This document shows, piece by piece, positions 9-64,000 of a stretch of DNA of 64,000 nt. Below the pieces are notes generated by a model that saw only the letters and a program-made list of their open reading frames with translations, ran no database searches and had not been told where the DNA came from. Both the position numbers and the translations under genes were made by a program. Numbering within the stretch: position 1 is the first letter of the stretch; each line of letters begins with the position of its first letter. Origin of the DNA: Megaleporinus macrocephalus (Eukaryota; Chordata; Actinopteri; Characiformes; Anostomidae); the NCBI GenBank assembly GCA_021613375.1, contig CM038703.1, positions 18,412,694 through 18,476,693 on the forward strand, written 5' to 3'.

Positions 9-93
9 CGTGGTATTCTGGGATCGTGCCAAGTGCTCACACCAGTTTGTGTGTGTAGAAAATAGACCTGGCCCTGTACGGTGGTTCTCTGCT
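9..93 (-). CDS. smurf1: SMURF1 coding exon 8, WW1 domain
   Basis: An 85-base exon, acceptor ctctacag and donor gtaggt. It encodes EQRTTVQGQVYFLHTQTGVS and TWHDPRIP. Only the second WW tryptophan is present; the first position is Tyr (LPEGYE), as in the family. The next exon is beyond the window. Confidence 0.95.
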
Positions 94-9000: not shown

Positions 9001-9089
9001 TTTACAGCCCTCACTGTAGGGAACACCTCATTAGACCTGAGCTTCATCACAGCATGCGTGGGAGCGAGCACCAGGGGAGGGGGGGCAAC

Positions 9090-9124
<35 letters not shown>

Positions 9125-10944: not shown

Positions 10945-10982
<38 letters not shown>

Positions 10983-26428: not shown

Positions 26429-26538
<110 letters not shown>

Positions 26539-26589
26539 ATACATATATTTTAGATATTTTTAGCTAGATATATGTGCTAAGCGTTTAGT

Positions 26590-27645: not shown

Positions 27646-27873
27646 TTGTGTGCTGAGGAACTGAACCACCATACCTACAAAGGTGAGTGTGGGGATAATG
27701 TGGACCCCATGCCTTTCCTGGCTCCCTCAGAAAAGGAGAGGCTGGAGGCCATGAACAAGTCCTATGACATCAAGAAGTCCTGCTGGGTGAGGGACGAGAA
27801 GAAAGGCTTCATTGCAGGAGAGCTCCAGTCTGAGGACGTTGACAAAGTCACTGTGAAGACGGTCAAAAACACA
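27646..27873 (+). pseudogene. myh16: MYH16 remnant exon: N-terminal SH3-like domain
   Basis: Encodes GECGDNVDPMPFLAPSEKER, LEAMNKSYDIKKSCWVRDEK and GFIAGELQSEDVDKVTVKTV, the myosin N-terminal domain. The frame opens only with TTG at 27646, and the first in-frame ATG (27709-27711) lies inside the conserved block, so the start codon appears lost or in an unseen exon. The next expected stretch (QTVTVKKDD to NPPKF and beyond) was not found. Confidence 0.85.
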
Positions 27874-28662
27874 GTTTGTTCAATGCAGGCTTGTTAAAAG
27901 TTTTTAAACATCATCCCAATCAATCTCTATCCCATTAGGGCATACTCTTTCATAGATCATGACAAATGTTTACAGATCAGAGCCTAGTATTAACCTCAAT
28001 TTACCACACCTTCTCTTAATAGATTCAGGTAGGAACTAAACTCTGCATGGAAGTAGCTCTCCAGGACTAGGGTTAAACAGCAAAAGAAAAATGCAGTATT
28101 TTAGGATATATCTGTAAAAATATATCATTTTCTGAACAATTTACTGCACAATTTCTATTGATCTGCTGAATTAAACATTCAGAACATAAACAGAAATGAT
28201 GTGTTCAAATGTATGGGGGATGTATTAACTAAACCAAAATGTGATTTGACCAAGCATACAATTATATATGAAACCTATAGTTGCAAAAAACTGAATTAAT
28301 TGTTTTTGTGACATCCAATACATTACACACATATCTGCCTATTCAGACTGTGAGGGGAGCTCCACCCCTTTATGTTGAAGTTACAAGGAATATTTCAGCA
28401 TGGACGTCTTTTTTAAACAGTAAAGGGCCACCAATCAGATCTGAACTTACTTACATTATTCAGTCATAAATACACAAAACAGCTAATTCTAAGCAAGAAA
28501 GAGAGGTTGGGAAATAGTGATATTAAAAAATGAAATATGACTGCTGTTGGTACCTAAACCACAAGTGGGCATCAAAAAAATATTGTTTCTGTATAGCATC
28601 AAAAGGGGTCCTGCTATCAAGAAAGTGGATCAAAAAACCTTTGATTTCTCTTGTGTTTGCAG

Positions 28663-29634
28663 ACCTACTCTGGGCTTTTCTGTGTGACTGTCATCCCCTA
28701 TAAATGGCTTCTAATATATGGCTCAAAAGTGGCTCAGAAGGAAAGAAATGCAATGAAGTTTCTCCTCATCTTTTCTCCATCTCTGGCAATGCATACCATG
28801 ATATGATGTTGGGTAAGTGATAACTTGGCAAAGTGGTGTTTGAAACATTTCAACATATGTACTTCCTCTAGAAAATATGCTGAAAGTTAATTTGTGCTCA
28901 TGGTTTTTAATTTTAGAGCATGAGAACCAGTCAATGCTGATTACGTAAGTTTTCACTTTGACAGTTTCTGTTGGTTCATTTAGTAAAATATGGAAATTGC
29001 TTAAATATTAAAAATATACTGCTCTAATACCTTTTTGTAACATCATTGTTCCTAGTGGAGAATACGGTGCTGGCAAGGCTGAGAACACCATAAAGGTCAT
29101 CCAGTATTTTGCCAATGTGGGTACCACTGGAGGAAAGCAGCCTCCAGATTCCAAGGCAAGCAAATGTGTTGGATCCTCTCGTGTGGAACATGATACTACA
29201 TTGGTTCCAAAATCTCATCAGTCCAAAGTTCATGTCCTTGCCCGCGTTCAGTAATAGAGATTAGTCTTGATAATGAAGATGTGCTTACACAGTCTAACAA
29301 AGTAAGTAAGTAATCTTTGTGCTTGATTTAAAATAATATATAGTAACAACTTGGACAGTAAAATAGCAGCCATAGGTTTTACTCCTGAATAACTTGCATA
29401 TTGGTTTCAGGGAAAATTTATCCGAATCCATTTCGGGCCAACAGCTAAACTGGCTGGTGCCGACATTGAGAGCTGTAAGTGTTGAAATGTACTCTGCATT
29501 TTAGACTGTTCCGCTAACATAGTTGTAATATTTGATATGCTTTTGCCTAAAGATCTACTGGAGAAGTCTCGTGTGATCTCTCAGCAACCAGTTCAACGCA
29601 GCTATCACATCTTCTACCAGCTTCTGTCAGGAAA
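28663..29634 (+). pseudogene. myh16: MYH16 remnant exons 2-6: P-loop and upper motor
   Basis: Exons at 28663-28812 (TYSGLFCVTVIPYKWLLIYG, then a frame break near 28740-28765 before PHLFSISGNAYHDMML), 28917-28944 (HENQSMLIT), 29056-29155 (P-loop exon), 29411-29474 (GKFIRIHFGPTAKLAGADIE) and 29553-29634 (LLEKSRVISQQPVQRSYHIF). The P-loop reads GEYGAGKA where the family has GESGAGKT, so two nucleotide-binding residues are changed. The exon that should carry NNNSSRF of switch I is absent between 29155 and 29411. The P-loop exon ends in a GC donor (AAG|gcaagc). Confidence 0.88.
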
Positions 29635-30528
29635 GTAACCAGAGCTGCTCGTTAAACATCGCAAACTTTTATCAGAAACAAAACCATTAACATGATGATG
29701 AACAATTTGTAATTTATGGGCCTATAACAATTCCTGTGGTGTTTGTTACAAATCAAACTCACTGTAACTGAAACGAAACAGGGAGTGTGTTTATATGCAC
29801 TTATTAATCCAGTAACTGCAGAAAATCAAAATTTGTCAGTAGTCTGTTTACCTAGTTCACATGCACTTGGGTAATCAGATAAAGAGAAGCAGCAAAATGC
29901 TTGCTTGTTTTGTACGTACACAGATTAAGAAATTACACAGAGAAAGAAATCAGAGTAAGGGTATTCATGCACTGGTATGTATGTAGCTGATAAATAAGCT
30001 AAGTATCTGCTTGCTGGCGCTTACTCAGATCTAAGAAACTGGAGTGTGCCATTTACATGACTACTTGAATAATCAGGTAACTGCAGAAATCTTATTATGA
30101 TCCAGTTATTAAGTGACTTAATGATATTAAAGTTCGAAGGTGGTTACACATATATTAAGTGAGCCCAACAGAATTTACTGGCATTTATGATTTATGTAGC
30201 ATTTTTAGTTTCAAATCCTGTTTTTCACAGATCATTACATATCTTCCCCCTTAAAATGTTCTCGACTGGCCAATTGTATTACAATTGTATTACAATTGCT
30301 TGACCTGATAATTTGAGTCTATTAAGTCTTTTTCTTATTTTCTTTGAGGGGTTTCTTTTCATTCCTATTTAATTCAGTTATAATAAATGCTTTCAGGCTG
30401 ACAGTCTTTAACTACATAGTGATTGTTTCATTTCAAATCAAGAGTCAAAATAATAAAAACACACCAGTTACTTATGAAGTGTACATTACAATCTTACAGA
30501 TTTTTTACCTTTTCTTGGTTCCATACAG

Positions 30529-32549
30529 ATGCTCTCCTATGCTTGGATCTGTCAGGGAGTCACTGTGGTGGATAACATGGATGATGGTGAAGAACTTATG
30601 CTAACTGATGTAAGCCAAATTCTATCATTAGCAATATTTAAACAACTATATTGTCCAGTGTTATAAGAAGTGAAAACATTATTTTGGGTTTTTCTTTGGT
30701 TTAAAGGTGGCATTCAATGTTCTTGGTTTTACTGCTAAGGAGAAAATTAACATTTACAAACTAACTGGGGGCATCATGCACTTCGGTAATATGAAGTTCA
30801 AGCAAAAACCGAGAGAGGAGCAGGCTGATGTTGACACAACTGAGGGTGAGCAGACATCATCCACAAACTTGAATGAGCTAGCAGAATGTTGCTTATAAGG
30901 ATATTAGCTCTCGTAATAATTACTTGCAATAAACCATTAAAACCTAAGCTTATTAATTAGTAAGGGTGGGCATAGTATCCAGCGTAGTATCACAATAATT
31001 TGCCTGGCAATATTGTATCATTACACAGATTTTTATTATATCAATCAATCAATCAATCAATCAACCTTCATTTTATCTCAGAAATACATTGACGGGTGAC
31101 CGAGCATTTACATTTTAAGGGATTGAAAGCAAAACAAACAAAAATAATAATAATAAACAAAATACAATTTTTAAATAAACATTTAATATAGAAGCATAAA
31201 ATATAATGTATTTTTTAATGGAATAAAAGAATATAAAATAAACACAAAATACATAAAAATAAACAAATAAGATAAAATTTTAAATCCTAATAGAAAGATA
31301 AACTCATTTAAAACAATCACAGGCTTTCTGACGGTGACTAGAAACTAAAAGTTTAAAATGGTTCAGTGATCCCAGTGAGCTGAGCTTTAGAGTTTAGAGT
31401 TTCAGCTCGCTGGTGCACTGTAGCTAAAAGCAGATTTTCCCAGTTCACTAAAAACTCTCGGTACCTGACAGGTGATCCAGCCACTAGAGTGAGTCTGATA
31501 ATTATTGTTATTTATTGAAATCAAGGAAGAGATGTAAGCTGGCAAATGGCCAGAGAGTGATTTATAGAAGTATAGATATAAATGTAAAGCATGTTTTTTG
31601 TAACAGTGTTGGTCAGTCTCTCTGTGTGACAGTCCCATTTAACCATGATTGAAGTGAGATAAACAGACTGAAAGCTTTATGACATTAGATAAAATTGATT
31701 GTTGACATAATTTTGTTGAAGATGATGTTAAAAAAGGGTGATAGATTGTGATGTATTTAGCAAATGTTATTACAGTATTTAGCATATGTGCAAAAGCCAT
31801 AGACCAGCCTTCATAAATAATTTATTTTTCAGACAAAATGGTCAAGTACAAGTTCAGGAGGGTTGCATTCAGTTTTTCAAAACATCTGCAGAGATATTTT
31901 TCCACGCCTTTAAAGTTCTCATGATCCTGGTAATCTCAAACAAAACACAGTACTATAGGTATGAGGGTGGATCCATAAATGAGTCATTAGGGTTTAAGGG
32001 AATATCCTCTTATAATTCACTTGTTTTTTTAGTGGCTGACAAAGTCGCCCACTTCATGGGGATTAACTCCGGGGATCTGCAAAAGGGGATCACCAGGCCT
32101 TGTGTTAAAGTTGGCAATGAGTTTGTGACCAAAGGTCGGAACCAGGCCCAGTGTGTCTACTCCATCGGTGCTCTAGCTAAAGCCATCTACGACAGAATGT
32201 TTAAGGGGATGGTGAACAGGATCAATAAAACACTGGACACCAAGCTGCAGCGCCAGTTTTTCATTGGAGATCTAGATATTGCGGGCTTTGAAATCTTTGA
32301 GGTAATGGTATGGTAATGTTAATGGTTTGTATGATCAGGTCTTCTGTCTCAGATTGGCCCCAAATTAATATGGGAGTTATTTTCTGCCACTTCTTCCACA
32401 GTTTAACAGGTCAACTTCACAAACTGCAACAGTTTTTCAACCACCACATGTTCGTCCTGGAACAAGAGGAATACAAGAAAGAGGGAATAGACTGGGTTTT
32501 TATAGATTTCGGGCTTGACCTGCAGGCCTGTATTGAGCTGCTAGAAAAG
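30529..32549 (+). pseudogene. myh16: MYH16 remnant exons 7-10: switch II and relay helix
   Basis: Exons at 30529-30609 (QGVTVVDNMDDGEELMLTD), 30707-30845 ([40 protein letters not shown]), 32033-32301 ([20 protein letters not shown] to [14 protein letters not shown]) and 32402-32549. Switch II DIAGFE is kept. The 269-base exon equals the sum of two usual family exons (119 and 150), as if an intron were absent. The last exon is 148 bases where 57 codons (171) are expected: the FNS..EQLCIN..NEK part is collapsed, and the frame is restored only at [20 protein letters not shown]. Confidence 0.88.
30961..31065 (+). mobile_element. MITE-like left end followed by (ATCA)n
   Basis: AAGGGTGGGCATAGTATC at 30961 resembles the terminus of the MITE at 36348, but no matching right end was found. 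A (TCAA)n run occupies 31043-31064. Located in a MYH16 intron. Confidence 0.4.
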
Positions 32550-32663
32550 GTTAGCTAATGTTCACTGAATCAAATTTCATTCTGTGAGCAATCTGTGCCA
32601 AAAATAACTTGCATCCTCAGTTTCCAGCATTTCCTCACTTCCTGATTTGCTTCTGTATTCCAG

Positions 32664-34723
32664 CCAATGAGTATCTTTTCCATCCTGAAGGAGCATTGTG
32701 TGTTCCCCAAGGCCACAGATGCCACTTTCAAAACTTTCCTGTATGACAGCCATCTGGGCAAGTCTGCTAACTTCCTTAAACCGAAAGGTGGGAAAAAAAG
32801 TCCAGAGGTTCACTTCGAGCTGATTCACTATGCTGGCACTGTGAGTCTTCTTAAACATGCATACATTTTCAATGTATCTAATGACCTTGTTGTTCAGTTT
32901 GAGATTTAATGTGTTCTGTCAAATCCAAATATTCAGGTTGGATACAGCATTGCATGCTGGTTACAGAAGAATAAGGACCCTCTGAACGAAACAGTGGTTG
33001 ACTTGTACCAGAAGTCTGCCATGTCTATCTTGGCTCACCTCTTCAAAGAAGAGGAAGCCCCTGCAGGAACCAAGAACCAGAAAAAGGGCTCGTCTTTCCG
33101 GACTGTATCTGCTTTCTACAGGGTAGTAGGATCTGCACTGATGATGATGACGATAGGTTCTCATTTTCAACATTTTAAACTAGGATTATTTGTTCTGCTC
33201 CTTGACTCTTGTTCGGTTACGTCTCATTTAATAGGAGCAGCTGAACAAACTCATGAGCACCCTGCGCAGCATGGCACCCCACTTTGTCCGCTGCATCGTA
33301 CCCAACGAATTCAAACAATCTGGTAAACATGGAACAGAAAGGATGGCTTGCTTTTGCTTAGAACATTACAGCACCAGTGTATAATTTGCTCCCACATGAA
33401 AGCGTCATTCCTGTGTTTTGGAACGCTTATGTAAGTCATTACGTTTGACCAGGTGTTTGTGATGCAAATTTAATCCTGCACCAGCTGGCCTGTAACGGAG
33501 TCCTGGAGGGAATCTGCATTTGCAGGAAAGGCTTTCCCAACAGACTGCAGTATCCTGAGTAAGCAAGGTATTCCTCTCCTACATAGTGTCTTACAGTGAC
33601 GTAATTACTGACCTTCAAGACCTCCCATATGTTCAATATACAGCCACGCTACCAATCCAAAGTTGGGAATCACTGTTTTCAGTAATATCAAACGATTTTG
33701 TCATAGCTGCATTTGTACAACAGTCAACAGTTTTTTCCAATGATGCAATCTGATTAGTTGTTTTAACAATATCTGTATATCTTTTCACTGAGCGCCAGTA
33801 ACCATGCAGGCAGAAGTAAGATAATAACATATAAAATTTCTGATAATAATATTTGACCGGAAGCCCTATTTGGTCAGGCTCTGAAGAGTGTGACAGCAGG
33901 TGTACATCCAATTTCCAAAATCCAACTGTCATTACACCTAAGTAAGTCTTTCAGTTGGCAGCTGTGACGGTTAGCCCTAATCGCAGTGCTGGTATTGAAT
34001 CACTGTTATGAATTCTTTCTTGTCTAGGCTCTAGAAAGCTGGCTCTTCTACAATCTTTTTTATTGTTCTATGGAACAGGGTAAATCTAGACTCATAAGAC
34101 TACATGACTGAAAATGGCCAATCTTTATGCTCCTTAGCGAATTGAAGATTTCTTTAAGAACAGTTTTATGGCCACCCAGCTGTTTAGTTGAAATCCTTTG
34201 AGTTCTCATTGCACTGTGACTGTGGAAATGCTTTTACTTTTAAAGATACTCGTGATTTTTTTCCAATTCCATGCATTTCAGCTTCTCCTTAGTTGTTTGC
34301 TTGATGCAGGCCAGTAAATTGACCCCTTTGAATCACATAAACATCTTTTCCATGACCAAAGGATATATCATGCAACATGGTTGTCTAAGACAATGAGTAG
34401 TCACTCACTGTACTCAGATGTTGTGCTGATTCTAAAAATACAAGGTACAGGAATAGGAATCGCGACACCATGTCATTTATCATTATCCATATTCTTGCCT
34501 TGAAATATAAAATGAAACATCTGGCCACACTGTCATACTATACCAGTAATTATTAATCTGATTCCAAACTTTTGAATGGTATACTATTAACTTGTTCTGC
34601 ATGTACTATATCCTGAAACCCAATGTGATTCCAAAGGGATTTGTGGACAACAAAAAGGCCTCTGAGTTGATTTTGGGCTCAACTGGGCTGGACCTTATGG
34701 AGTACAGGGTTGGACACACCAAG
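32664..34723 (+). pseudogene. myh16: MYH16 remnant exons 11-15: lower motor, loop 2, SH helices
   Basis: Exons at 32664-32840 ([20 protein letters not shown] to HYAGT), 32937-33122 (DPLNETVVDLYQKSAM; loop 2 GTKNQKKGSS), 33235-33322 ([16 protein letters not shown], actin interface), 33453-33558 ([20 protein letters not shown]; the family has IRICRKG, so R to C) and 34604-34723 (KPNVIPKGFVDNKKASELIL to EYRVGHTK). The last exon has no AG acceptor and lacks the FKQR codons; a Tc1-like element ends about 20 bases upstream. Confidence 0.88.
33641..34586 (-). mobile_element. Tc1-like DNA transposon, internally deleted
   Basis: Terminal inverted repeats: 33649-33672 matches the reverse complement of 34559-34582 at 20 of 24 bases (core CCAAAGTT.GGAATCA). 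The left end is flanked by TA. The reverse strand carries degraded Tc1 transposase-like words (for example the segment around AAGGAGCATAAAGATTGG and AGTCTAGATTTACCCTGTTCC). No long frame survives. It lies in the intron before MYH16 remnant exon 15, and its right end abuts that exon. Confidence 0.75.
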
Positions 34724-34806
34724 GTATGGTCACTGGACCAGAATGTCACATGTTTCAGTTCCTGACTGCAGATTGTCATGAAGTATGTCATGAATACACT
34801 TATTAG

Positions 34807-35242
34807 CTGTTCTTCCGTGCTGGAGTCCTGGCTAAGCTTGAGGACATGCGAGATGAACGGCTGGCTAAAATCATGACTATGCTGCAGGTCCTCCTAAGGG
34901 GCACACTCATGAGAGTCGAGATCAAGAAGATGCTTGAGAGAAGGTCAGTCTGTGCTTTTCTCTATAAGTGTTTCCTCTCTTCTTCACACTTAATTCAAGC
35001 ACTGTCATATTTCTCCCCCTGGTGCGGTGGATAGGGCTGCCCATTGCACTGGGCAAATGTGCTTACTGACCCTAGTGTGTGTCTGTTTCACTGCATAGAT
35101 GGATTCAATGTGGATGTAAAATTAATCAGTGTGTCTAAATTTAAAAAATAAAAATTTCAGAATTGCTCTCATTGCAATCCAGCGAAACATGAGGAAGTTC
35201 CTTCAGCTGTGGTTCTGGGGTTGGTGGAAGCTCTACACAAAG
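34807..35242 (+). pseudogene. myh16: MYH16 remnant exons 16-17: converter, IQ/neck, head-rod junction
   Basis: Exons 34807-34943 (137 bases; [40 protein letters not shown]) and 35161-35242 (82 bases; [27 protein letters not shown]). Both are open and in frame. The light-chain-binding IQ core is altered ([10 protein letters not shown] in place of the usual QARCRGFLMR). Confidence 0.9.
35019..35137 (+). mobile_element. SINE-like fragment
   Basis: The words GGTGCGGTGGATAGGGCTGC, GGGCAAATGTGCTTACTGAC and TGTGTGTCTGTTTCACTGCA in this order are typical of a common fish short retroposon. It lies in the short intron between remnant exons 16 and 17. Confidence 0.5.
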
Positions 35243-36347
35243 GTGAGTCACAGTTATTCATTAAGGACAGAGTTTTTTGCTTCTTTCTTATTTTCTCATT
35301 TGTTTTATGCCCTTTTTAGGTTAAGCCATTGCTCCACGTAGCTCGTCAGAAGCATGAGCTAAAAGCCCAGGAGAAAGAGTTACGAGTTGCACTTGAAAAA
35401 ACAGTGGAAATGACGAAAAGATCAAAGAGCTTGATGAAAAACTAGTCACTCTCTCCAAAGAAAAGAGTGACTTGGCTTTAGCCCTAGCAGCTGTAAGTCC
35501 AAGGGTATAATCATGACATATTAAAATACATGTGGAGAGAGAATGCAGCTAAAACGGAGTTTGTTGGCACTTTTTTCCACTCATAGGAACAAGACAGCAT
35601 AGCAGATGCGGAGGAACGCTGTAACCAGCTGATGAAACAGAAGACGAACATGGAAGAGCAGATTCAGGATATGAAGGAGAGGCTGGAGGAGGAGGAGGGT
35701 GCAGCTACAGCATTAAGTGCTCAGAAGCACAAGTTGGAAGGAGAGCTGGTGGACCTGAAGAGAGACCTTGAAGGCTTGGAATCTACTCTGGCAAAGTCAG
35801 AGAAGGAAAAACAGGTGAAAAGCAAGGTTGAATTTTCCCGCAGAGAAGGCAGAGAAGGCCTAACAAATTCTGCAAAATAATAAATAAATCCCAGTGGAAA
35901 ATTCTTCCATTAGGCTTTCTTTTCTTCATAGTATCTAGACAGACACAACCAATCCAAGCAGCTAAACTAACACATCAGTTTAACCACTAACATTATTTAG
36001 AACTTACTGACAGTGGAATAAACCTATTACATTTGGTTTTCAGTGGGTGGGACCAATTTTACAAGGAGAAAAAATCACTCTAGGCCTTTAATACACTACT
36101 GATTTTTTGTATAGAGATGATAGCCTGACCAGATGTTAAAAATTGAAAGCTGCAGTAGCAGTTCAACAAGTGAGCTCCCTACTGAAAGAGTCACTGCAAA
36201 ATACTACAGAAAGTATATGTTACTATGGCTCTTCAAAAGTTCAAGTGCATAATTTAATGGCTTATATAAATTTAAAATGTCTGCATTTGCAAACATTTCG
36301 AATTCTAGAGTAGGGTGGGGGTAGCAGAAACAAGCATTATCATAGAG

Positions 36348-36602
36348 TAGGGGTGGGCAATATGTGTTTATGTGTTATGCTTTTTTGAGCATATTGTAAA
36401 TACTTTAAGAACACTGAATAACTAAATGACTACATGTTTCATTACAAAGTGAGCATAATTAGTTGACTGTAGTTGAGATTCATTATCGGTACTAGTAATT
36501 TTGTGGCACAACAAGTTCTATTTTGTCTTAAAACTTATTAAATCTCAGAAAAATAAAAAAGTGTATTGTGATATAATATTTTTGATATATTGCACACCTC
36601 TA
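36348..36602. mobile_element. hAT-type MITE with perfect 8-bp target duplication
   Basis: A 255-base AT-rich element with inverted ends TAGGGGTGGGCAATAT and (reverse complement) TAGAGGTGTGCAATAT. It is flanked by identical octamers TCATAGAG at 36340-36347 and 36603-36610. No coding capacity. Inserted in the intron between remnant exons 19 and 20. Confidence 0.85.
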
Positions 36603-36683
36603 TCATAGAGGTGTTTTTTCATTCTTCTTTGACCAAGATTTGACAACTGCAGTCCAAACTGAAGGTCTATTTCAAGTTTAGAA

Positions 36684-37554
36684 CAGAGGTCACTAATGGG
36701 CGGACCGTAGTCCAGGTCCGGACTCAGACGTTGTCCAATGCGGACCCAAATCAATAAACGATTGAAAAGGATTTAATGTTGACAGTGTTTATTTTAAGTA
36801 ATGTAACTTTTTCTTGTCTTTACGGTATACGGACTTTGCGGTGCAGTAAAATCACGTGCGTTGTATGATCACCAAAGGCGCTCCTCAACCAATCAGATCT
36901 GAGTGGGAGAATAAAGCGAGTCAGAGAGTAAAGCAAGTCGGAGAAGAAAGCGAGTCAGAGAGTAAAGCAAGTCGGAGATTAAAGCGAGTCAGAGAGTAAA
37001 GCAAGTCGGAGAGTAAAGTGAGTTGGAGAGTAAAACGAGTTGGAGATTAAAGCGAGTCAGAAAAAGAAAAAAAAAGAAAAAAGAAAAGTCGACTTTGAAA
37101 ACAAACTTTTCAACCAGGAGTGGAGAGACATAGATGTTCAGTCTTCCCACAGGCAGCTTCAAACCAGCAGGTCAAGATGTGAAACTGAGTTAACAAGAAG
37201 ATGCACGTTTTATTTACTTTTCCTGTAAATCAGCTTTTTATGATACCCGTTTATTTAAAAGCATTCTGTTTTTTTATGTAGCCCTTGTTTTTTCTGAAGT
37301 AAGTAAACATTTTTTTTAAGTTTTATAAATCGTTCATTCAGTTCAGCATTTAAACAGTAAATATTGATGAAATATATTGAACAGTATGTGTAATTTGTTT
37401 TGTCTTTCAGTTGCTGATGACATAAAATGCTGATAGTAGGCTACTTCAGTATACAGGATATGGCACTGAATCATAACACAGAAATTATGAAGGTCCGGAC
37501 CTTGGCCTGAGGAAATTTCCTCTAACTGGACTGATTTATAATTAAATACCCCTG
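36684..37554 (+). mobile_element. hAT transposon remnant, 871 bp, with BED-type N-terminal peptide
   Basis: Ends CAGAGGTCACTAAT and (reverse complement) CAGGGGTATTTAAT fit the hAT CAG.GGT terminus. Flanking octamers GTTTAGAA (36676-36683) and GTTTAGGG (37555-37562) match at six of eight positions. Near 37080-37130 it encodes KRKVDFENKLFNQEW, the usual start of a hAT transposase before its BED finger; the rest of the transposase is deleted. A 17-base minisatellite precedes this peptide. Confidence 0.8.
36908..37060. repeat. 17-bp minisatellite, nine units, inside the hAT element
   Basis: Nine 17-base units with consensus AGAGTAAAGCRAGTCRG. Units alternate CGAGTCAG and CAAGTCGG over the first six, giving a 34-base higher-order period. 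Confidence 0.9.
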
Positions 37555-39317
37555 GTTTAGGGTTTAAGAAGGTTTAAGTATAATAATCACTGGATAGTAA
37601 CTGTATTTAAGTTCTTTTCTTGCCTCCTGGAAACCTTTAAAAAAGGTGTCTAATTCGGATATAACAGAATACCCAGAAATATATATATATATATTCCCCT
37701 GTGGCACTCCAGAGCCTGGACACCAAAGTGCGTACTCTTGACAACAGAGCTTGATCAGAGGGATGACATCATTGCCAAGTCCCATAAGGAAAGGAAGGCT
37801 TTGGAAGAACTGCAACAGGTTAGGCCCTGCCGCACAGTTTATTTGTTCCCCCTGTCTTCCACAACCATTGCCAAATTGATACGTTTCAATCCACATTTCT
37901 ATCCCCAGAAAACTCTGGACGACCTTCAGGCAGAGGAGGATAAAGTAAACCATCTCACCAAAACCAACAGCAAGCTCACCACTCAAGTGCATGAGGTAAG
38001 TTTAAAAAACAACACAAAAAAACAAGACATAAAACCTCAAAGAGACACTGTAATATTAAAAATCCCATTTTCTTCAGTTGGAAGACAGCTCGGAACAGGA
38101 GAAGAAATCTGAGGAGAGGTGGAGAAAGCCAAACACAAAGCAGAGGCTGACTTGAAGATGACCATCGATAATCTCAGCGAGATGGAGAGCGCTAAAATGG
38201 ATCTGGAGGAAGTTGTCAAAAAGTACGCACAATAGGGGTCTGTACATTCTGCAGGGTCTCATTTTGCAACCCTTAGCATTCGTTTTTTTACTGCACATTT
38301 TAATTTCAGGAGGGACATAGAAATTAACCATTTGAACACAAAACTGGAGGATGAACAATTCCTCAGCTCCACTCTGCACAGGAAGCTCAAAGAGCACCAG
38401 GTTTTTTTTCCCAATAATCTCTCGCTTTGATTTCAGTCTTCTCTTTCTAACATAGACGATTATGTCACGAAAACAAATGACTGCTATTCCCTTGCAATTC
38501 CGCTTACATATTTTCCTGTCACGCAGGCCCGTATTGAGGAGCCTGAGGAGGAACTGGAGGCGGAGAGGGCAATAAGAGTGAAGGTATATGACTCAGTTCA
38601 TTTTACTGCAGTGCTTTTTCCAAACGCTTTGTTTTCTAGTCATTAGTTCAACTGTGTCTTTTTTCGAGGGTTGAAAAGCAGCGAGCAGATCTGTCCCGGG
38701 ATCTAGAGGACCTCAGCGACAGACTGGAGGAGGCAAGAGGTGCCACTGTTGCGCAGGCAAGCCAGTTTAATTGAAACTCTTTCTATATGTTTAAACTCTC
38801 ATCACACTTAGAATGCTGAACTAACTTTGTACAACAGAGCAGATAACATTTTCTCTTAGAACATAGTCCAGAAAAGTGCTGTGCTGTTACGGTTCTAATG
38901 GACCAATGGACATTGCATGGAACAAAATCTCGTTACATAACTGTCTATTATTATGACTTAGTACACTCAGTTTAAATCTTTTCTCATACTGTATTCACCC
39001 TCTATCTGAAAGCCTCTGTTGAAGCTCCTGTGTGCTCTCCTGATGAGGTCTGTTTGGTCTGGTGGTTTCTGCGGCCTATACTTTGGACTTTAAAACTTTG
39101 TAGAACATTTACACGCACAAAAAGTGACAGAGCATAACAGGTCACGTTTCAGTCCGCTCCTGTAAAGTTTCTGTTTTAAAGGTACTAGTTTCTCTTTTAA
39201 CAGCGATAAAGTCTAATATGAGTTTCAGTAGCCTACATGTAGACAGTCCCCACATTAAACATTAGTCTAGCTGCTCTGTAGCTGACCTACTGTTAAATGT
39301 AGATAAGCGTTTCTATA

Positions 39318-39628
39318 TCCGTCCATTCATTATATTACACTTTATCCCGCTAGTCGGGGTCACGGGGGGCTGGAGCCAATCCCAGCGTCATCAGGCAAAG
39401 GCAGGGTATGCCAAGTGTAGATCACTAGTCCATCGAATGGCCAACACACACCTACAGGCAATTTAGATTGACTGATCAGCCTAACATGCATGTGTTTGGA
39501 CTGTAGAAGGAACCCACAGTATACGTAGGAAACCCACTCAAGCACAGGGAGAACGACCTGCTCTCGGAATCGAACTGGGATCGTCTTACTGTGAGGCGAT
39601 AGTACTAACCGCTACACCACGGTCCACC
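39318..39628 (-). mobile_element. tRNA-derived SINE, full-length-like
   Basis: On the minus strand it starts with a tRNA-like head (GGTGTAGCGGTTAGTACTAT and later GATTCCGAGAGC), continues with the widespread fish body (CATGCATGTTAGGCTGATCA, then GGGATTGGCTCCAGCC), and ends in an ATGGA-type tail near 39320-39335. It sits in the intron between remnant exons 25 and 26. Confidence 0.8.
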
Positions 39629-41261
39629 TCATTTTTATATCTATGCTGTTTGTCCATGTCTACCTACTGCGCTCTCTGTCCTGAAAGCAGTGGTCTACAG
39701 CCTGACTATGAAAACGTTATTATGTATGTTTGTGTTTTTTGCGTAGTTTAGTCCAGCATGCAAAGTTAAAACAGAAAACATGACTCTTTCCCATGATTAC
39801 AGTGGAGCATAGCAACATTTTACTAGCCCCAACAAATTGGCTCTAGTAAAGCCCCTGGATAGCAGAATGGCTAATGTTATGGCCTTGTGTGTTGGTGGCT
39901 GTGGTTAAGATCCTTGTTTAGTCAGTGAATCTAATATTCAAATGTCCATTCATTCATGGCTCTTTCTCTTCTTGAGCCCCAAAATGTCTGTATATATGCC
40001 CGGTAAGTGGTCATACATGACTATTCCAAACACTTTTCCAATGTATGTTTCCACATAAGAAGACTGAGCAGAATAAAAAACGTGAAGCTGAGCTCCTGAA
40101 GCTCCACAGAGAGCTGGAAGAGGTGGCTCTGTCTGAGGCCACCGTCTCTGCCCTGAGGAATAACATTCAGATGCCCTGGACGAGTTGGCTGAACAAGTAG
40201 AAAATCTACAGAGAGTCTGCATCAAGCTGGAGAAAGACAAGCAGGTCATGAAGGCGGAGATTGATGATCTGAATGCCACGGTGGAGTCAGTGCAGAAATT
40301 CAAGGTGAGAGATAATCACCAGCAATGTAATTAGCCAGGCAGTAATTTCTCAGTGCTTACCCCTACAATGATTACCTTTTATCATGACACAGTATTACTT
40401 ACTTCTTGTAGCTCAGTGCACCATCATTTAAATCAAATGCTGAGGTCCACGTCTGTAAGTTAGAGGACGGCCTGGCGGAGGCTAATTCCAGGCTGGCAGA
40501 GATGGACAGTCTCAGACTGAGCTCAATGCTTTCAAAATCCGTCTGTCAGGTAGAGACAGCACATCCCCTCCCAGAGCTAAAATTACTAGCATTACTCATG
40601 CTATGAATAAATCATATGAATGAGACGTCTCTATGATCTTCTCGCAGCCGAGAACAGTGATCTCAGCCGTGAACTCGAGGAGGCACAAAGCAAGTTCAAC
40701 CAGATCACCCAGATCAAGGCTTCACTGACCACCCAGAACGATGAGCTGGAAAGACAGGTGGATGAAGAGTCGAAGGTGAATATAATCCTTAGGATTGTGC
40801 ACATGGTTCTTTATGCAAAACTCAGGAACAACATTGAACAATGAAATAAAAACATGCAGAAGACCAGAACATAATGAATGTAACACAATACTTTTATCCT
40901 TCACTGAAATAGTCTTTCTTATGTATATATTCCATATTTGTCCTGGTGTAAAAGTACTAAACAAGTTCTTTTAGGGAGGTCTCTTTGACGGTTTGGGAGT
41001 CTTAACTGTGTTTCTTCTGTAATTACAATAGAATAAGAGAAATAACAGTAGACAAATAGACAAGTGATACTTCTGGCCCAGATGATAGTTACAAAATCAA
41101 AACTGAGGCTCTCAGAAATAGAGAAATGTTTGACTTCCTGTCCTCAGTTCACTTCAGTTGCAGAGTGAGATGTGATGAGTGTTTCTTGGTGAATCTGAGC
41201 TTTAGTAAGATATCTACTAAAACCCAGGAGGAGACATAAGATTAAGATAAAATGCAAACAA

Positions 41262-41545
41262 AGTCATTCAGAGTGGTTTGGTGAGATATAGTCTATTCTA
41301 GCGAACCCTCCTTAATCACAATTGTTCACAGTGGTGGTGAGAGTAACCAGATGTCAGAAGAGTTTAATGTTTCTGAAAGCACTTCCACAAAAAGTTGTTA
41401 CACAAAAAACTTCAATATACTGCTTGATGTATGAGACATTGTTATATAGTTTTGTGATAAACCTTTGGCCAAAAATGTTTTATTAATCTATGTATATTAA
41501 TCCATTCATGGCTGAGGGGTACATGCAGGGTGTTATGAGGCAACA
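41262..41545 (+). repeat. Dispersed repeat family A, copy 3
   Basis: Contains GCAAACAAAGTCATTCAGAG at its left end (as in 21,470) and GAGGGGTACATGCAGG at its right end (as in 26,836). It lies in the 2-kb intron between remnant exons 28 and 29. Confidence 0.7.
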
Positions 41546-43237
41546 TAGTCCCCAAAGAAGACTTAGGACTATTTTACCATCATTTCATATAAAAAATTAG
41601 AAGATGTGTAGGTTTACTGGTGGGTTTGGATAGTAGATAAACTGGCTATATTTGTGTTGTAGACATGGTGAGCCCTGGTCTTTATCACCACCACTGTAAA
41701 GTAATCTATAACATTCTGTAACATTCTCTCTGTAACATTCTCTGTAACTAATCTTTCTGATTGACTTTTTAGTTTACATCACAGCAACAGAACTATAGAA
41801 ACTGTAAAAAAAACCCTGTTGATTTCCAATTCATGCCAAATCTAATTTGTCTTTAGTGTCAGATCACATTGTTCACTATAAGAAACTACAGAGATATTAA
41901 GGTTTCATTGCAACAGCATTTTGTGTATCATTTTTTGATAATAACAGAAGTGTTTTTATTCTTTATGTGTAAATGGTATACTTTATCTAATCTTGCTCCC
42001 CAGAGATTCATGAATTACAATCTGCGGTGCATACAATTAGATTAAATGAACACATCGACATTAGACACCATGGACACTCCAAATTTTATAGCTTTTTATT
42101 TTCCAAATTAGTGATTTTATCAATATAATTACTTGTGTATTTTTTGGTATTCTAAACAAAAACATGTGCACATATAGCCATGATGGTTTAATGTGTGGTA
42201 ATGTAATGGTTTATTCACATTTTATGGATTGCGGTTCACATATTTACTCTCACAAAATACGTACCACTCAAAAATACTTTTTACCAAAACTACTTCAGAT
42301 TTCTGTTAATTGTGCCTTTTTGAACAAGAAAAATAATCTTTTCATAACTATTTAATAATTTATGTAGTAAATGGTTAACCTTCCTATTATGTTATAGGTC
42401 AATTTGACCGGTCTCCACTTTGAACTGTCTAAAATATTGTTTGGAATCACTAAAGAAAATGTTTATTAAATAGCTGTTAAAATTGTAAATATACAAGATG
42501 TTCTCATAATTTATATTTCTAAATCTTCAGTTCAGTTTATAAGAATTTAAATTAATTTTTATTGCTTTGACTCGTTTTTTAACATAATAGGAGGGTTAAG
42601 CACATCCACAAGCAAGTACCTTTTGTACATACACACAACTCAGAATACAGACAGAATATATTTACTTTTATTCAAGTAATTTTTAATCACTGTCATTTCT
42701 GCTTTACCTCGATAAATACTTACTTAAACTACTGTACCTTCTCTAGCCCTGTAGAAAATGAACCTAGCCTTAACCACATTCAGGCTTGGAGTGCAGCTGT
42801 GATAGGACTGGCTAATGCTCAACATAACCTGGACCTGATAAAAGAGCAGCTGGAGGAGGAGCGGGAGGGCAAGACGGAAATGCAGCATCTCATTTCCAAA
42901 CTAAATTCCGAGGTGACTCCCTGAAGGACCAAGTATGAGACAGATGCCATCCACAAAACTGAGGAGCTGGAGAAGACCAGGGGAGCAGATTAATGCTTTA
43001 AGTATGATTTAGGTAACACAAACCCCAAGTGCTGTTTGCAGGTCTTACTATGTAATTAAAATACTATGATATTAAAAAGAGAGGATCCCCCCATAGGCGT
43101 AAGCTGACCGCCCGGCTTCAGGAGGCAGAAGAAGCAGCAGAAGCAGCCCAGGCTCGAGCAGCCAGCCTTAAGAAGATCAAGCAAAGGCTTCAGGGAGAAG
43201 TGGAGGATCTGACTATCGACCTGGAGAAGGTTAAGAG

Positions 43238-43282
43238 CCACCCCTACTACTACTACTATTACAACTACTACTACTAGTACTA
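43238..43282. repeat. (TAC)n microsatellite
   Basis: An imperfect TAC trinucleotide run just after remnant exon 30. Confidence 0.85.
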
Positions 43283-43709
43283 CTAATAACTCATGGAGCG
43301 TTCACTTGTTATTTGTTATTTGTATTCCATAGTCTAGTAAATAGTTTCCCAACAACAATGTATACATTTTCGATGGCTCTCTTTCCATCGTCCCATTTTT
43401 TTAAAGGTGTTAACTGAGAACGTGGGCTTTCTCTCTTCATTGTAGTCTAATGCTGCTGCTGCTGCCCTTGACAAGAAGCAGCGCACCTTCAACAGGATGA
43501 TTGCCGAGTGGAACCAGAAGCACGAGGAGCTGCAGCTTGAGCTGGAGAATTCCCAGAAGGAATGTCGCTCCTACATGACGGAGGTATACAAACTCAAGAC
43601 GGCCTATGAGGAATCACTTGACTACCTGGAAACTGTCAAGACAACAAAACCCTTTCTGATAAGATGACATGCTAATAAGACAAGATCATGTTTAAACCTC
43701 TAACTATCG

Positions 43710-44135
43710 TTAAAATATATATTTTTAAATATTTTATAAAGACTACTTAAAGACTGCTGTGCTCAATGTTTATTATATTATATGTGGGGTCTAGTAGAAT
43801 GGATATACATGCTACACCATACCCAAAACATCTGTACATCTGTATTGACCCTCTGTTAGAACTCCTGTGTCTTTAAGCCCTGAGAGGACATCACCTTGTA
43901 ACAGAGGAAAAGGCTGAAAAACAATTTGTTTTAAGGCAGCTGACATAAGTCGTTAAAATATATATTTTTTAATATTTTCTAAAGACTAATTAAAGACTGA
44001 TGTGCTCAGTGTTTATTATATTATTTGTGGGGTCTACTAGAATGAATACACATGCTACACCATACCCAAAATATCTGTACATCTGTAACAGAAGAAAAGG
44101 CTGGAAATCAAGATGTTTTAGGCAGCTGACAAAAG
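43710..44135 (+). repeat. Two-copy tandem duplication, about 245-bp unit
   Basis: 43,710-43,950 and 43,955-44,135 share TTAAAATATATATTTT, AAAGACTG.TGTGCTCA, GTGGGGTCTA, GCTACACCATACCCAAAA and AGGCAGCTGAC in the same order. The second copy lacks about 60 bases in its middle. It lies in the intron between remnant exons 31 and 32. Confidence 0.8.
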
Positions 44136-44253
44136 TAGTTACTGTTGGAGAGAGTTTCTCCTTGTTGCCTGTACTTTAGCCTTTATAACTTTGTTTACAT
44201 GTTCACAAGCATAAAAAGCTACAAAACACACTAAAGAAGATGAAAATGGAAAA

Positions 44254-44263
44254 ATAATAATAA

Positions 44264-44303
<40 letters not shown>

Positions 44304-44333
44304 ATAAAATAATAATAAAATAAAATAATAATA
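44254..44333. repeat. (AAT)n microsatellite
   Basis: About 80 bases of AAT/AAAT repeats in a MYH16 intron. Confidence 0.9.
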
Positions 44334-45348
44334 AAAGCGCTGCTAGAGAGAGAGTATGTGCAGTGAGCATGTTGTAACATGAAAATTATTATGCTATTAT
44401 GTGGTTAATAGTGTTTATCGCATCTTTCAATCAACGTTGTCCACAAGTACAAGTTTATGTAAACGTTTAAGTAGCCTGGGTCAAATGAAGATACTGTATT
44501 TTGTTGATTTCCATGTAAAAATTAAGTACATGTCCTTCAGCTTGTGTTTACCTTGCATCTAACTGTACTTCTCTAATACACAGTCCACAGTATGCTTGAA
44601 TAAACGCTCTGACCTCTAGATGAGAGCCGAGATCTCATGGAGCAGCTGGGTGAGGGTGGACAGAGTGTTCACGAGCTGCAGAAAGCTAAGAAGAAGCTGG
44701 AAGTTGAGAGGGATGAGCTGCAGATAGCCCTGGAGGAGGCAGAAGCCTCTCTGGAGGTATAACAGAGGATCTGTTTAACAATGACACCACTGTATATGTA
44801 TTTTTGTTGTCTTAGTACTGAGATGACTAATTCTGCTTTTAAGCCCTTTGGCCTGCTTTGAGTATGTGCAACTGCTCTCTTGTGCCTTTTTTTATGGATG
44901 GTAAGGTGGTCTGAGTGCAGCTGGAGCTGGCTCAGGTCAAGGCCGACATTGATTGCAGGATTTATGAGAAAGAGGAAGAGTTTGAAATCACAAGGTTAGA
45001 ATCCAGACAAGTCACAAACCAAATTGAGTTATTGGCTATAAATTAGGTTTAATTTGTAAGACAGGAGAAAAAAGAGGTTTTCCTCTTGACGCTCTTGGTT
45101 CTTTCCAGAAAAAACCAACAGCAAGCCATGGAGTTACTACAGGCTAGCCTGGAGGCAAAGGCCAAAGGTCATGCCGAGGCTGACCTGAACGAGATGGAGA
45201 TCCAGCTGGACCATGCTAACAAGAACAACTGTGAGCTAGTCAAAGCCCTGAAGAGGCTGCAACACAAGATCAAAGTAAGTCGAACATCTTAAAACTCTAG
45301 ATAAACTCCATCGTTTCCTACAGGTCTCAAGTAATCCTGGGGGAAGTG

Positions 45349-45392
45349 TGAGGGGTGGTATATATATATATATATATATATATATACCACCC

Positions 45393-45396
<4 letters not shown>
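45349..45396. repeat. 48-bp perfect palindrome within a (TA)n tract
   Basis: TGAGGGGTGG at 45349-45358, then fourteen TA units, then CCACCCCTCA at 45387-45396. The full 48 bases are self-complementary. Confidence 0.95.

Positions 45397-45468
<72 letters not shown>
45397..45468. repeat. (TA)n microsatellite
   Basis: TA run continuing from the palindrome to ATCACCCC at 45467-45474, in the intron after remnant exon 34. Confidence 0.95.
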
Positions 45469-45472
<4 letters not shown>

Positions 45473-47549
45473 CCCAAAATATACAAAGTTATACAAATAT
45501 CCAAACTCAGCTCAGTGTACTTCTTACTGCTCTGTGTTAAAGTTGAAAGAAGTACCATTTGCTGCAAGTCACTCTGCACAGCCTGAAAGAGTGATTTAAA
45601 AGAAAAAAGATCCCAAATGCAAAATCAGCAGTATATTAATGAAGATATGATGACAATTCTAGCTAATCCAAATACATCCTCAGGAGACATGCCCTTCACC
45701 AAGTTTAAGTTCTTCTTGAAGGTTGTTTCAACACACGCACAATCATCAGATTCATCCAACACTCATCTGACATTACAGCATGTTCTTTCACACGTTGCTT
45801 GCAAGTACACATTTCCAACAGAGAGGTTTCCAAATCCCTGAAACATACATTGTGTATTTAATTGGATAGTCAAATAAGGAATGCATTTGGAATAAAAGTT
45901 ATGTATCGTCTTATCGTGCAGCAATGATCCAAAGAAATGTTCAAACAAAAGCAGCTGATATTGTGCCTTATGTTACACAAGATGCAGTCCTGTTTATTCA
46001 TAACCGTATAACATAGTTTTAAAATAGTGTTAAAATAGGACGAAGTATCTCTGGGTGTAAGGAAACTGGGGGTAGGTTAGTTTGTGTGTGAGAAACTCAT
46101 AACAAGTTAATAATTGATGATATTTGATTTTTGGATAGACTACAGTATTCAAATGTGTAATAGGCTACATGTAGGTTGCAGGTATTCGAAATAAATATTG
46201 TGAAACATTTTGAAAAGGTAGTATTCAAAAAACACCAGTATTTAAGACACCTTAAGATTTTAGGAGAAAACGTTTGCACAAGGTTTAAGATACAGGGGTT
46301 CCAGGACCTCTATCCCTAGAAATGAACGTATTAAGACGTTAAGCTGTTTTTAAAAGAACCTTGTTTGGTCATTGTAAGGTCATTGTTTAGCCGCTTTACC
46401 CACAATCAGTAAGCTTCTGTCTGGTTTTCTGCAGCACTGCAGTCTGCCTCAAGGTGGTACTGTAGCAAATTGTTTCACCCAGTAGTTTGTTCATTGTCTA
46501 GATGCTGTAACTAAATATAAAGATATTGGAAATATAAACATTTGCCTAGTTCCTTAAAAGTTTAGTGCAAATAATAATTTAATGCTCATTTCTCAAACCA
46601 AGAATGAAACCTGGAATATCAGAGGGAACTAGAGGAACTAGAGGAAACTCAGCACATGATCAAGCTAGAAAAGAGTATTTCCACTAGAAGAAAACCCAAC
46701 ATTTAGTTGTCAGTAAAGCTTCAGTGTCACTATATCATGTGAGCAGCCAGACAATGTTGGAGTACCTGGTCCACATGGGACCCCCAAATACTAAGGGGTA
46801 ATTCTGGACACTGTTTTTACAACCACCTAAATAAAAATCTATAATCTTTAAAACAAAACTCAAACTATTAACTGAACAAACACCTTCCTTGCGAATAGAG
46901 TTCTTTTAGGAGGACACATTTGCAAATGATAAGCCAAGCATCTGCACTTTACTGGATTTGTTGCTACATTACAACATATAAAGTTACATGCATGACACCA
47001 AAATAAACAAATCTTGAAACTAAGCATTTTATATAAATGTGCAACTTTTAAACTGTTAAATTGTTTATACTTTATAGAATTTTCTAATACCTTTCTAACT
47101 AAGCAGATGTTCTTGTATTTTCTCTGACGGGCAGGATATGCAGATGCAGTTGGATGAAGATGCAAGACAGCATGAAGAGCTGAGAGAGCAGTACAGCCTA
47201 CAGGAACGACGGCTCTGCTTTATGCAGACAAAGATGGAGGAGGTGCGCAGCGGGCTGGAAGCCTCAGAGCGCTCCAGGAAACACACTGAGCAAGAGCTGG
47301 TAGATGTTACTGAGCGCCGTAATGAGCTTAATGTGTAGGTAGGCAACACATTTCTACAACAGAACACTGTTCAATACTGAGATGAAAAAAATATATATAA
47401 TAAAAATCATGTAAAAATTACACTATAGTGTATAATAATAACACTTTACTTTTACCTTCAGTCAATAGATCCAGACTTCTGTTTATTTCTTTTGGCCTGT
47501 ATATCATGAAATTTTCACACAATATAAAGAACAATAGACATTATGAAAT

Positions 47550-48517
47550 TCTGTCTAGAACTGATGGACATGCAGAATAAACCCTCATGTTGAATATCCC
47601 AGTAAGGAAATGGAAGTGGAGTGGAGTCCTGCCACCCAGTAATGCCTAGACAAGACCGTTCCTAAAATCCAGCGCCACAACAAGAAGAGGACTTGTCAGG
47701 GAAGCCAAACGAAGGCCAACAATCACTCTGATGATGCTAAAAATCTTAGTGGCTAAAACTGGAGTGAGGTTAAAGAGATCATACTGGCCTACTGGCCATT
47801 ACTGAATAAAAAAATCACAATCAATCTAAACGCATCTCACTGGCGCAGCTACTATGTAGGATACATATTTTGGTCATATGAGACAAAAATTGGGCTAGGA
47901 AATTTTAATTGCAATTGTGGTTTTAGCCATTCATCAAAAAAAAAAACAATTGCAGTAGTGAAGCATGGGGTGGCGGCATTATATTGTGGAAATGCTTTTC
48001 CTTTGCAATGACTGGGCTTCTTGTTGATACTTAAGGATGGACGAATGAAAGGATTGTGCCAAATATAGGAAGTTATATAGGAGTTAGTCTGCTAAAGTGT
48101 GGCTAGACAACAGATGAAGGTTCTGCCAAGTCAAAGTTCAGATCTCAATCCAACCAAGAATCATTTACAGTATTTGAAAATTGCGGTCCACAAGTGTCTT
48201 CCACCAAAACAAACTAGAACAAATCGGCCATCATTTCAAATGCTGTACAGACCTGGTAGGAACTTACAGCTGCTACCGTAGCAAATGTTTGGTTATACCA
48301 ATTATCACTCTGAAGGCTTTAAATACTTATGCAAGCAGCATTTTTCAGTTGTACATTTTTTAAAAAACTGCTAATCAACAATGAATTTTGAACATGACAC
48401 ATTACTTTAGGAGCAGGTGGGTTTGCAATAAATAGTTTGTGGCAATCTATGTGTCATTTGTAATCCAGATGAATCTGATGACTTTCAGCAGGTTAAATAC
48501 CTTTGCAAAGCACTGTA
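47550..48517 (+). mobile_element. Tc1/mariner transposon fossil, 5' truncated
   Basis: Degraded transposase-like segments in order: around 47,660-47,720, the GAGACAAAAATTGGGCTAGG and GAAGCATGGGGTGGCGGCAT words, and SQSSDLNPTKNHLQYLK near 48125-48175, which corresponds to the SPDLNPIEN motif. The right end AAATACCTTTGCAAAGCACT at about 48496-48515, then GTA, is a typical Tc1 terminus. Located between remnant exons 35 and 36. Confidence 0.78.
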
Positions 48518-48985
48518 TACTAGTATTCAGCATGCATGTTCTCTCCCTCAGAACCAAAGTTTAACTGTTATCAAGCGTAAAATGGAACCAGACCTGATAC
48601 GACTGTCCAACGAGCATGAAGAGCTGATCAGCTAGTTCCGTGCTGCTGATGAAAGAGTCAAGAAGGCCGTCACAGATGTTAGTATTAGACTCATCCCCAA
48701 GAACATCTCCAGTCTTTTAAATACTCATGAACCAGATTACATTCGGGATTTTCATCACTTTCCCAGGCAACTCGCATGGTGGAATAATTCAGACAGGAGC
48801 AAGACCATTGCATCCATCTAGAGAAGATTAAGAAAAACAATGAGCTCACGATTAAAGAACTGCCGCTGAAAGTGGAAGAGGCAGAGGAGCTCGCGTTAAA
48901 CGCTGGCAAAAGTACCACCCAAAACCTGGAAGTCAGGGTGAGTCATAACAGGACCTCTCTCTGCCTTCACATATGTTTATATCAT

Positions 48986-59037: not shown

Positions 59038-59119
59038 TTGGGAGACCCCCACAGAGGTGGGGTTTTAGGCATGCCCCCTCGTCACTAAAAGCGAATAGAG
59101 ACAAGGAGGGCAAACCTAG

Positions 59120-63920: not shown

Positions 63921-64000
63921 TTGGGGAGAACCCCCACAGAGGTGGGGTTTTAGGCATGCCCCCCTCGTCCACTAAAAGTGAATAAGACAAGAAGGGCACA

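What the first reader, a model, noticed from the sequence alone, without database searches (positions are those of the whole stretch)
27646..48937. MYH16 lost in a fish, next to an intact SMURF1
A complete-length, intron-bearing myosin gene is broken by five stops and many frame breaks, while eight SMURF1 exons in the same window are perfect. The order and orientation (SMURF1 minus, myosin plus, head to head) is as I recall it for human 7q22.1, where MYH16 is also a pseudogene. This suggests a second, independent inactivation of the jaw-muscle myosin, in a teleost, with possible links to feeding mode.
Basis: partly seen in the sequence, partly recalled or inferred. Interest (0 to 1): 0.85.

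Follow-up and report, generated by a model that had tools for sequence, protein, structure and literature searches.

The report
Lost jaw-muscle myosin gene in piauçu
The South American fish piauçu (Megaleporinus macrocephalus) carries a broken, neutrally decaying copy of MYH16, the ancient jaw-muscle motor gene that is also dead in humans and several other mammals, and no working copy was found elsewhere in its genome.

Summary
Confirmed, with a corrected history. Window 27,676-48,940 (+) holds 37 exon remnants of MYH16 (my count). They are 88% identical to intact MYH16 of the related pacu Acnodon over 1,676 alignable residues. They carry five in-frame stops, at least seven frame-breaking indels, broken splice sites, two unrecognisable motor exons and no recognisable last 131 residues. 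A tree puts them inside the MYH16 clade (100/100); placement with the genome's fast/cardiac myosins is rejected (p-AU 4e-57). A genome search with one diagnostic MYH16 exon, 86 of 86 candidates scored, found this copy at 93%; the next by score is 71%. Private substitutions ignore conservation: 67 of 126 at invariant sites, 68.0 expected, against 170 of 648 in 30 intact orthologues. Neighbouring SMURF1 is undamaged. Contig lengths identify Megaleporinus macrocephalus. So this is a unitary MYH16 pseudogene, roughly 8-20 million years old under assumed mutation rates. It is not "the second" loss: MYH16 died repeatedly in mammals. My paper searches listed no fish case. The feeding link is untested; the recorded diet includes seeds and crabs.

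The parts
27676..48940 (+). MYH16 unitary pseudogene: 37 exon remnants spanning residues 5-1813 of the 1944-residue Acnodon MYH16
   Evidence: spliced alignment; trees
27676..27891 (+). first coding exon remnant; no ATG at the expected start (CTGAACCACCATACC stands before TACAAAGGT); an in-frame ATG survives at residue 16
28651..28811 (+). exon TYSGLFCVTV..., frame broken at 28,740 with codons missing
29054..29164 (+). P-loop exon; GESGAGKT reads GEYGAGKA; the following exon (residues about 217-244) is not recognisable
29552..29650 (+). exon with in-frame stop TAA at 29,636-29,638 (Acnodon K294)
32032..32301 (+). best-kept diagnostic exon (93% identical to Acnodon); uninterrupted where the genome's other sarcomeric MYHs have an intron (position 418 of the C6 myosin), the intronless C6 gene excepted
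32402..32549 (+). exon FNSFEQLC...KLQQFF with a net loss of 23 nt (frame broken)
35320..35492 (+). exon with frame break at 35,415
37713..37818 (+). exon with frame break at 37,737
38078..38220 (+). exon with frame break at 38,113
40063..40304 (+). exon with frame break at 40,164
40433..40548 (+). exon with no acceptor AG at 40,432 and frame break at 40,507
42784..42980 (+). exon with stop TGA at 42,922-42,924 (Acnodon W1365); donor at 42,981 reads GG
44891..44994 (+). exon with stop TGA at 44,912-44,914 (Acnodon R1554); no acceptor AG before it
48546..48677 (+). exon with stop TAG at 48,633-48,635 (Acnodon E1741)
48767..48940 (+). last recognisable exon, stop TAA at 48,785-48,787 (Acnodon E1762); residues 1814-1944 not recognised downstream
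11..19929 (-). SMURF1, eight 5' exons (19,876-19,929; 3,077-3,115; 1,968-2,075; 1,301-1,435; 1,101-1,166; 916-990; 483-722; 11-94), no damage found; ten more exons lie left of the window
   Evidence: recalled query

Best explanation
A unitary pseudogene of MYH16, the masticatory (jaw-closing) sarcomeric myosin heavy chain, in Megaleporinus macrocephalus. Shown here: orthology, loss of the reading frame along the whole gene, no second copy found in the assembly, and evolution without protein constraint in both motor and rod. Inferred: the gene died within the anostomid/Megaleporinus lineage after the split from pacus, about 8-20 million years ago for assumed neutral rates of 5e-9 to 2e-9 per site per year; jaw-closing fibres now run on the remaining sarcomeric myosins of the genome; loss was tolerated because MYH16 was no longer needed for jaw force.
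For: Protein search with a 1,113-residue read-through: the first rows are fish myosin-16, Acnodon 80%, Electrophorus and Hoplias 78%. Tree: MYH16 clade 100/100, Acnodon sister 97/91, tip 0.12 against 0.016 (26 of the 31 rows; in the quick 31-row tree the sister branch has 89 and the tips are 0.119 and 0.017). AU test against fast/cardiac placement p 4e-57. Lesions. Own-genome search with Acnodon residues 380-469, 86 of 86 candidates scored: the window at 93% (172.9 bits), next by score 71% (136.1 bits), half-exon matches up to 80% at 77 bits or less. Of 18 fetched own myosin loci plus the C6 gene, none exceeds 67.9% to Acnodon MYH16. Neutrality: 67 of 126 private residues at the 896 invariant of 1661 columns, 68.0 expected; 30 intact orthologues pooled 170 of 648, Fisher p 7e-9; Tajima counts 154 to 16 with Hoplias as outgroup; five stops against 7.3-8.1 expected. 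Five intron positions absent from every covered own sarcomeric MYH locus. SMURF1 beside it as undamaged control.
Against: One assembly of one species. It is built from PacBio long reads with QV 37.5, and other MYH loci of it are not clean: L011 has seven clustered frame breaks, L025 seven and a stop, L009 one stop, L024 two stops, so single indels here could be errors; substituted stops, lost exons and the neutrality test are not explained that way. The window row used for tree and neutrality was built by alignment to Acnodon, with the worst stretches left out, which favours likeness to Acnodon. Some of the 10 non-GT-AG junctions of 42 modelled lie beside lost exons and are alignment artefacts. 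The age rests on assumed rates. No expression data were seen.
Confidence: 0.96

Rival explanations
1. An intact gene broken by assembly or sequencing errors.
For: Long-read assembly with QV 37.5 (PMC11590113 passages); clustered indels in another MYH copy, L011; 4 of 11 own sarcomeric loci show a stop or frame break in the table.
Against: At QV 37.5 about one base error is expected in a 5.8 kb coding sequence. The lesions include five substituted stops, a GG donor, missing exons and 126 private residues spread without regard to conservation. SMURF1 beside it has none, and 7 of 11 own sarcomeric loci show 0 stops and 0 frame breaks.
Confidence: 0.01
2. A decayed duplicate, with a working MYH16 elsewhere in the same genome.
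For: Teleosts have duplicated genomes and tandem MYH arrays; the whole-protein search scored only 24 of 3907 candidates and so cannot exclude it.
Against: The exon search scored 86 of 86 candidates and found one MYH16-like exon, this one. None of the 18 fetched loci is MYH16. The assembly is 96.2% complete by BUSCO, so a copy in a gap is not excluded.
Confidence: 0.02
3. A remnant of a fast-skeletal, cardiac or MYH7B gene that merely sits beside SMURF1.
For: All sarcomeric MYHs are alike; the genome has large arrays of them.
Against: Tree and AU test; distinct intron positions; by the same local alignment 81.8% to Acnodon MYH16 against 51.7% to Colossoma MYH6, 52.1% to own fast L009 and 55.4% to own MYH7B L015.
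Confidence: 0.005
4. The broken gene keeps a reduced role: a truncated protein, a regulatory RNA or an enhancer.
For: One in-frame ATG survives at residue 16; many splice sites are intact. An RNA or enhancer role was not tested.
Against: Neither motor (29 private residues at invariant columns, 29.9 expected) nor rod (38, 37.0 expected) shows residual protein constraint.
Confidence: 0.04

Closest known systems
Human MYH16 pseudogene (7q22.1)
   Same: Same gene dead; beside SMURF1 (human neighbourhood recalled, not from a call).
   Different: Human: a two-base frameshift deletion in exon 18 (PMC6402096 passage). Here: many lesions and lost exons, a separate event in a fish.
MYH16 losses in other mammals (mouse deletion; pangolins, anteaters, three-fingered sloths, armadillos, echidna)
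   Same: Unitary losses, several with many inactivating mutations (PMC6402096 and PMC12906968 passages).
   Different: Several are tied by those authors to reduced chewing; this is an omnivorous ray-finned fish reported to eat seeds and crabs (PMC11590113 passage).
Intact teleost MYH16 (Acnodon, Hoplias, Electrophorus and others)
   Same: Orthologues by tree; 1944 residues in these three.
   Different: Those are full-length and constrained (private-residue ratio 0.00-0.83 in the 30 orthologues compared, window 0.99).

Membership tests
MYH16 (masticatory myosin heavy chain) | Falls in the MYH16 clade, outside the other sarcomeric MYHs | tested here: met
   100/100 clade, (100); p-AU 4e-57 against joining nine own fast/cardiac MYHs
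MYH16 (masticatory myosin heavy chain) | Extra introns relative to other vertebrate sarcomeric MYHs (five in human, per PMC6402096) | tested here: met
   Five positions (834, 1003, 1130, 1159, 1585 in C6-myosin numbering) absent from the 9, 8, 7, 7 and 5 own intron-bearing sarcomeric loci covering them (coverage counted by me). Whether they are the human positions was not tested; 1130 and 1159 have damaged splice sites, so their exact place is unsure
MYH16 (masticatory myosin heavy chain) | Neighbour of SMURF1, head to head | tested here: met
   the human order itself is recalled
MYH16 (masticatory myosin heavy chain) | ARPC1A on the other side (recalled neighbour, not a defining feature) | tested here: inconclusive
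   no tblastn hit for a recalled ARPC1A in the window plus 10 kb on each side; genome-wide searches for it did not complete
MYH16 (masticatory myosin heavy chain) | Expression in jaw-closing muscle | not testable with these tools
   no RNA data
Unitary pseudogene | Disabled along its length | tested here: met
Unitary pseudogene | No functional counterpart in the genome | tested here: met
   86 of 86 candidates for one diagnostic exon; within the limits of one assembly
Unitary pseudogene | Intact orthologue in relatives | tested here: met
   full-length proteins
Unitary pseudogene | Neutral evolution | tested here: met

The most novel reading that the evidence does not exclude
A natural knockout of the jaw-closing myosin in a seed- and crab-eating fish, arising within the anostomid lineage and one of several teleost losses (read by eye, no cypriniform MYH16 stands among the 120 rows of either MYH16 listing, although cypriniforms are in the database), which would mean that MYH16 loss does not track bite weakness outside mammals and that teleost jaw muscle swaps its motor freely.
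Probability: 0.4. Interest if true: 0.6.

Novelty: new member of a known kind. Interest (0 to 1): 0.42.

Why it matters
MYH16 loss in humans is a famous, disputed case of a gene death linked to jaw and skull form, and several mammal losses have been read as signs of weaker chewing. A lineage-specific loss in a fish with full-length, constrained orthologues in close relatives gives an independent test outside mammals: compare jaw-muscle myosins, bite force and diet across anostomids and pacus.

Tried and rejected
Fast-skeletal origin, duplicate with a working copy, and assembly error were each tested and rejected (103; 44, 47, 52). Using the protein listings as a census of teleost losses was rejected: they show 90% clusters under one name and 120 rows only, and a pupfish 'myosin-16-like' is in print (PMC5450241 passage) although, reading by eye, I saw no cyprinodontiform name in the MYH16 listings. 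A carp 'MYH16' in print is 90% identical to a myosin-11-like protein in that paper's own table (PMC5910588 passage), so I did not count it. Of eight open frames of 100 codons or more downstream of the pseudogene, six were scanned and gave no Pfam match. The whole-protein genome search was too thinly scored to decide on a second copy; outside the window its highest identity was 87%, in one conserved 61-residue exon on C4. dN/dS and a proper date were not possible: I had only proteins of relatives, no coding DNA. Whether the extra introns lie where human MYH16 has them could not be tested.
Full report
Where it is. Two contig lengths of the window's genome (C1 73,843,892; C13 45,034,219) equal the maximum scaffold and the scaffold N50 of the Megaleporinus macrocephalus assembly in Table 1 of PMC11590113 (passages read). 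The totals differ slightly (1,281,940,832 bases in 100 contigs here; 1,282,030,339 in 101 scaffolds there). The genome is therefore that of the piaucu (Characiformes, Anostomidae), a PacBio/Hi-C assembly with QV 37.5 and 96.2% complete BUSCOs.

The observation. Aligning the genome's own intronless C6 myosin and then Acnodon MYH16 (P0001) with a spliced, frameshift-tolerant script of my own gives 37 exon remnants (my count) on the + strand from 27,676 to 48,940. Leaving out unreliable stretches, 1,676 residues align at 88.3% identity to Acnodon. Five in-frame stops and at least seven clear frame breaks are present. Ten of 42 modelled introns lack GT-AG ends, some of them artefacts beside lost exons; the GG donor at 42,981 and the missing acceptors before 40,433 and 44,891 are clear. 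Two motor exons (residues about 77-114 and 217-244) and residues 1814-1944 are not recognisable. No ATG stands where the start should be. SMURF1 on the other strand aligns over its whole length in 18 exons, with no stop or frame break and 17 of 17 GT-AG introns (recalled query; about 26 residues without a good match). Among the genome's other sarcomeric MYH loci, 7 of 11 fetched ones show no stop and no frame break; L009 has one stop, L024 two, L011 seven frame breaks and L025 seven and a stop (L011 and L025 looked at).

What it is. A protein search with 1,113 residues of the read-through returns fish myosin-16 first, with Acnodon, Electrophorus and Hoplias on top. In a 26-row maximum-likelihood tree (31 rows less five) the remnants fall in the MYH16 clade (100/100), sister to Acnodon (97/91), with a tip of 0.12 against 0.016. 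The 31-row quick tree agrees, with 89 for the sister branch. Holding the remnants together with nine own fast/cardiac MYHs costs 348 log-likelihood units (p-AU 4e-57). The intron table adds independent support: positions 834, 1003, 1130, 1159 and 1585 are split in the window and in none of the 9, 8, 7, 7 and 5 own intron-bearing sarcomeric loci that cover them (834 is also split in the non-sarcomeric locus L018); 584 is shared, among sarcomeric loci, only with L015 (MYH7B by its mir-499); and the window lacks the intron at 418 that those loci have. Human MYH16 is reported to have five extra introns (PMC6402096 passage); equality of positions was not tested.

Is there another copy? The Acnodon MYH16 stretch 380-469 was searched against the whole own genome with 86 of 86 candidates scored: 72 matches, one at 93% over the full exon (this window, 172.9 bits), the next by score 71% (the C6 gene, 136.1 bits); half-exon matches reach 80% at 77 bits or less. 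A whole-protein search shows nothing else like MYH16 but scored only 24 of 3907 candidates and so is weak. Of 18 fetched own myosin loci plus C6, the highest identity to Acnodon MYH16 is 67.9%.

Is it neutral? Against 30 full-length MYH16 proteins (picked by me from the 135 then held), 896 of 1661 compared columns are invariant. The window has 126 residues seen in no other row, 67 of them at invariant columns (68.0 expected by chance). The intact proteins taken one at a time have ratios of 0.00-0.83 and pooled 170 of 648. Motor (29 against 29.9) and rod (38 against 37.0) both sit at expectation. Tajima counts, window against Acnodon, are 154 to 16, 146 to 24 and 150 to 22 with Hoplias, Electrophorus and Hemibagrus as outgroups. 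Five stops stand against 7.3-8.1 expected for the neutral missense changes. The excess of 138 changes (154 less 16) over 1661 codons gives 8.1-20.2 million years for neutral rates of 5e-9 to 2e-9, which are assumed and not sourced.

What is known. MYH16 is described as the oldest vertebrate sarcomeric myosin, expressed in jaw-closing muscle including that of shark, a pseudogene in human and lost repeatedly in mammals (passages of PMC6402096, PMC12906968 and PMC11050549). In fishes, a rockfish MYH16 is highest at gastrula (PMC8228858 passages), and a pupfish myosin-16-like gene is in a table of genes that may contribute to jaw differences (PMC5450241 passage). Searches for 'MYH16' with 'teleost' (5 papers), with 'pseudogene' and 'fish' (15), with 'zebrafish' (16), with 'Characiformes' (0), 'masticatory myosin' with 'fish' (12) and 'myosin-16' with 'teleost' (3) listed no report of a fish MYH16 pseudogene. 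I read the listings and passages of eight of these papers, not whole papers.

A lead, not a result. Read by eye, the two MYH16 listings (120 rows each) show no cypriniform MYH16; the cypriniform seen, Danionella, matches at 59-60%, the level of other MYHs. Cypriniforms (Danionella, Sinocyclocheilus, Cyprinus) are in the MYH6/MYH7 listing.

Limits. One assembly, no reads, no RNA, no DNA of relatives. The feeding link is speculation; [quoted passage not shown]

Noticed in passing
window 56072-64000 and on to the end of L027 (C2:18,486,693): Tandem array of ~4.88 kb units, about 94-96% alike, each with a tRNA-like element on the - strand (58,964; 63,849; 68,709; 73,579 in window numbering); a more diverged tRNA-Glu-like copy lies at 53,585. 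It starts about 7 kb beyond the last pseudogene exon.
   Followed up: partly
G000:C6:34160532-34166279 (-), L001/L029: An intact, intronless full-length myosin heavy chain reading frame, 97% identical to Colossoma myosin-6: an MYH6 in a single exon.
   Followed up: partly
L025 (C25:22579000-22588999) and L011 (C25:22529000-22538999, locus 8050-8735): Fast-type MYH copies in the C25 array: L025 with a stop, several frame breaks and deletions (likely pseudogene); L011 with clustered single-base indels (pseudogene or assembly error).
   Followed up: partly
G000:C13:37.42-37.60 Mb: The large fast-MYH array lies on C13. The genome paper places the ZW system on its chromosome 13; whether C13 is that chromosome was not checked.
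   Followed up: no
L024 (C13:38571000-38580999): A second MYH7B-like gene, 71% to the mir-499-bearing MYH7B at L015; my model of it has two stops that were not looked into.
   Followed up: no
window 26433-26548 and 45359-45469: Long TA dinucleotide runs (54-58 copies), one between SMURF1 and the pseudogene and one inside a pseudogene intron.
   Followed up: no
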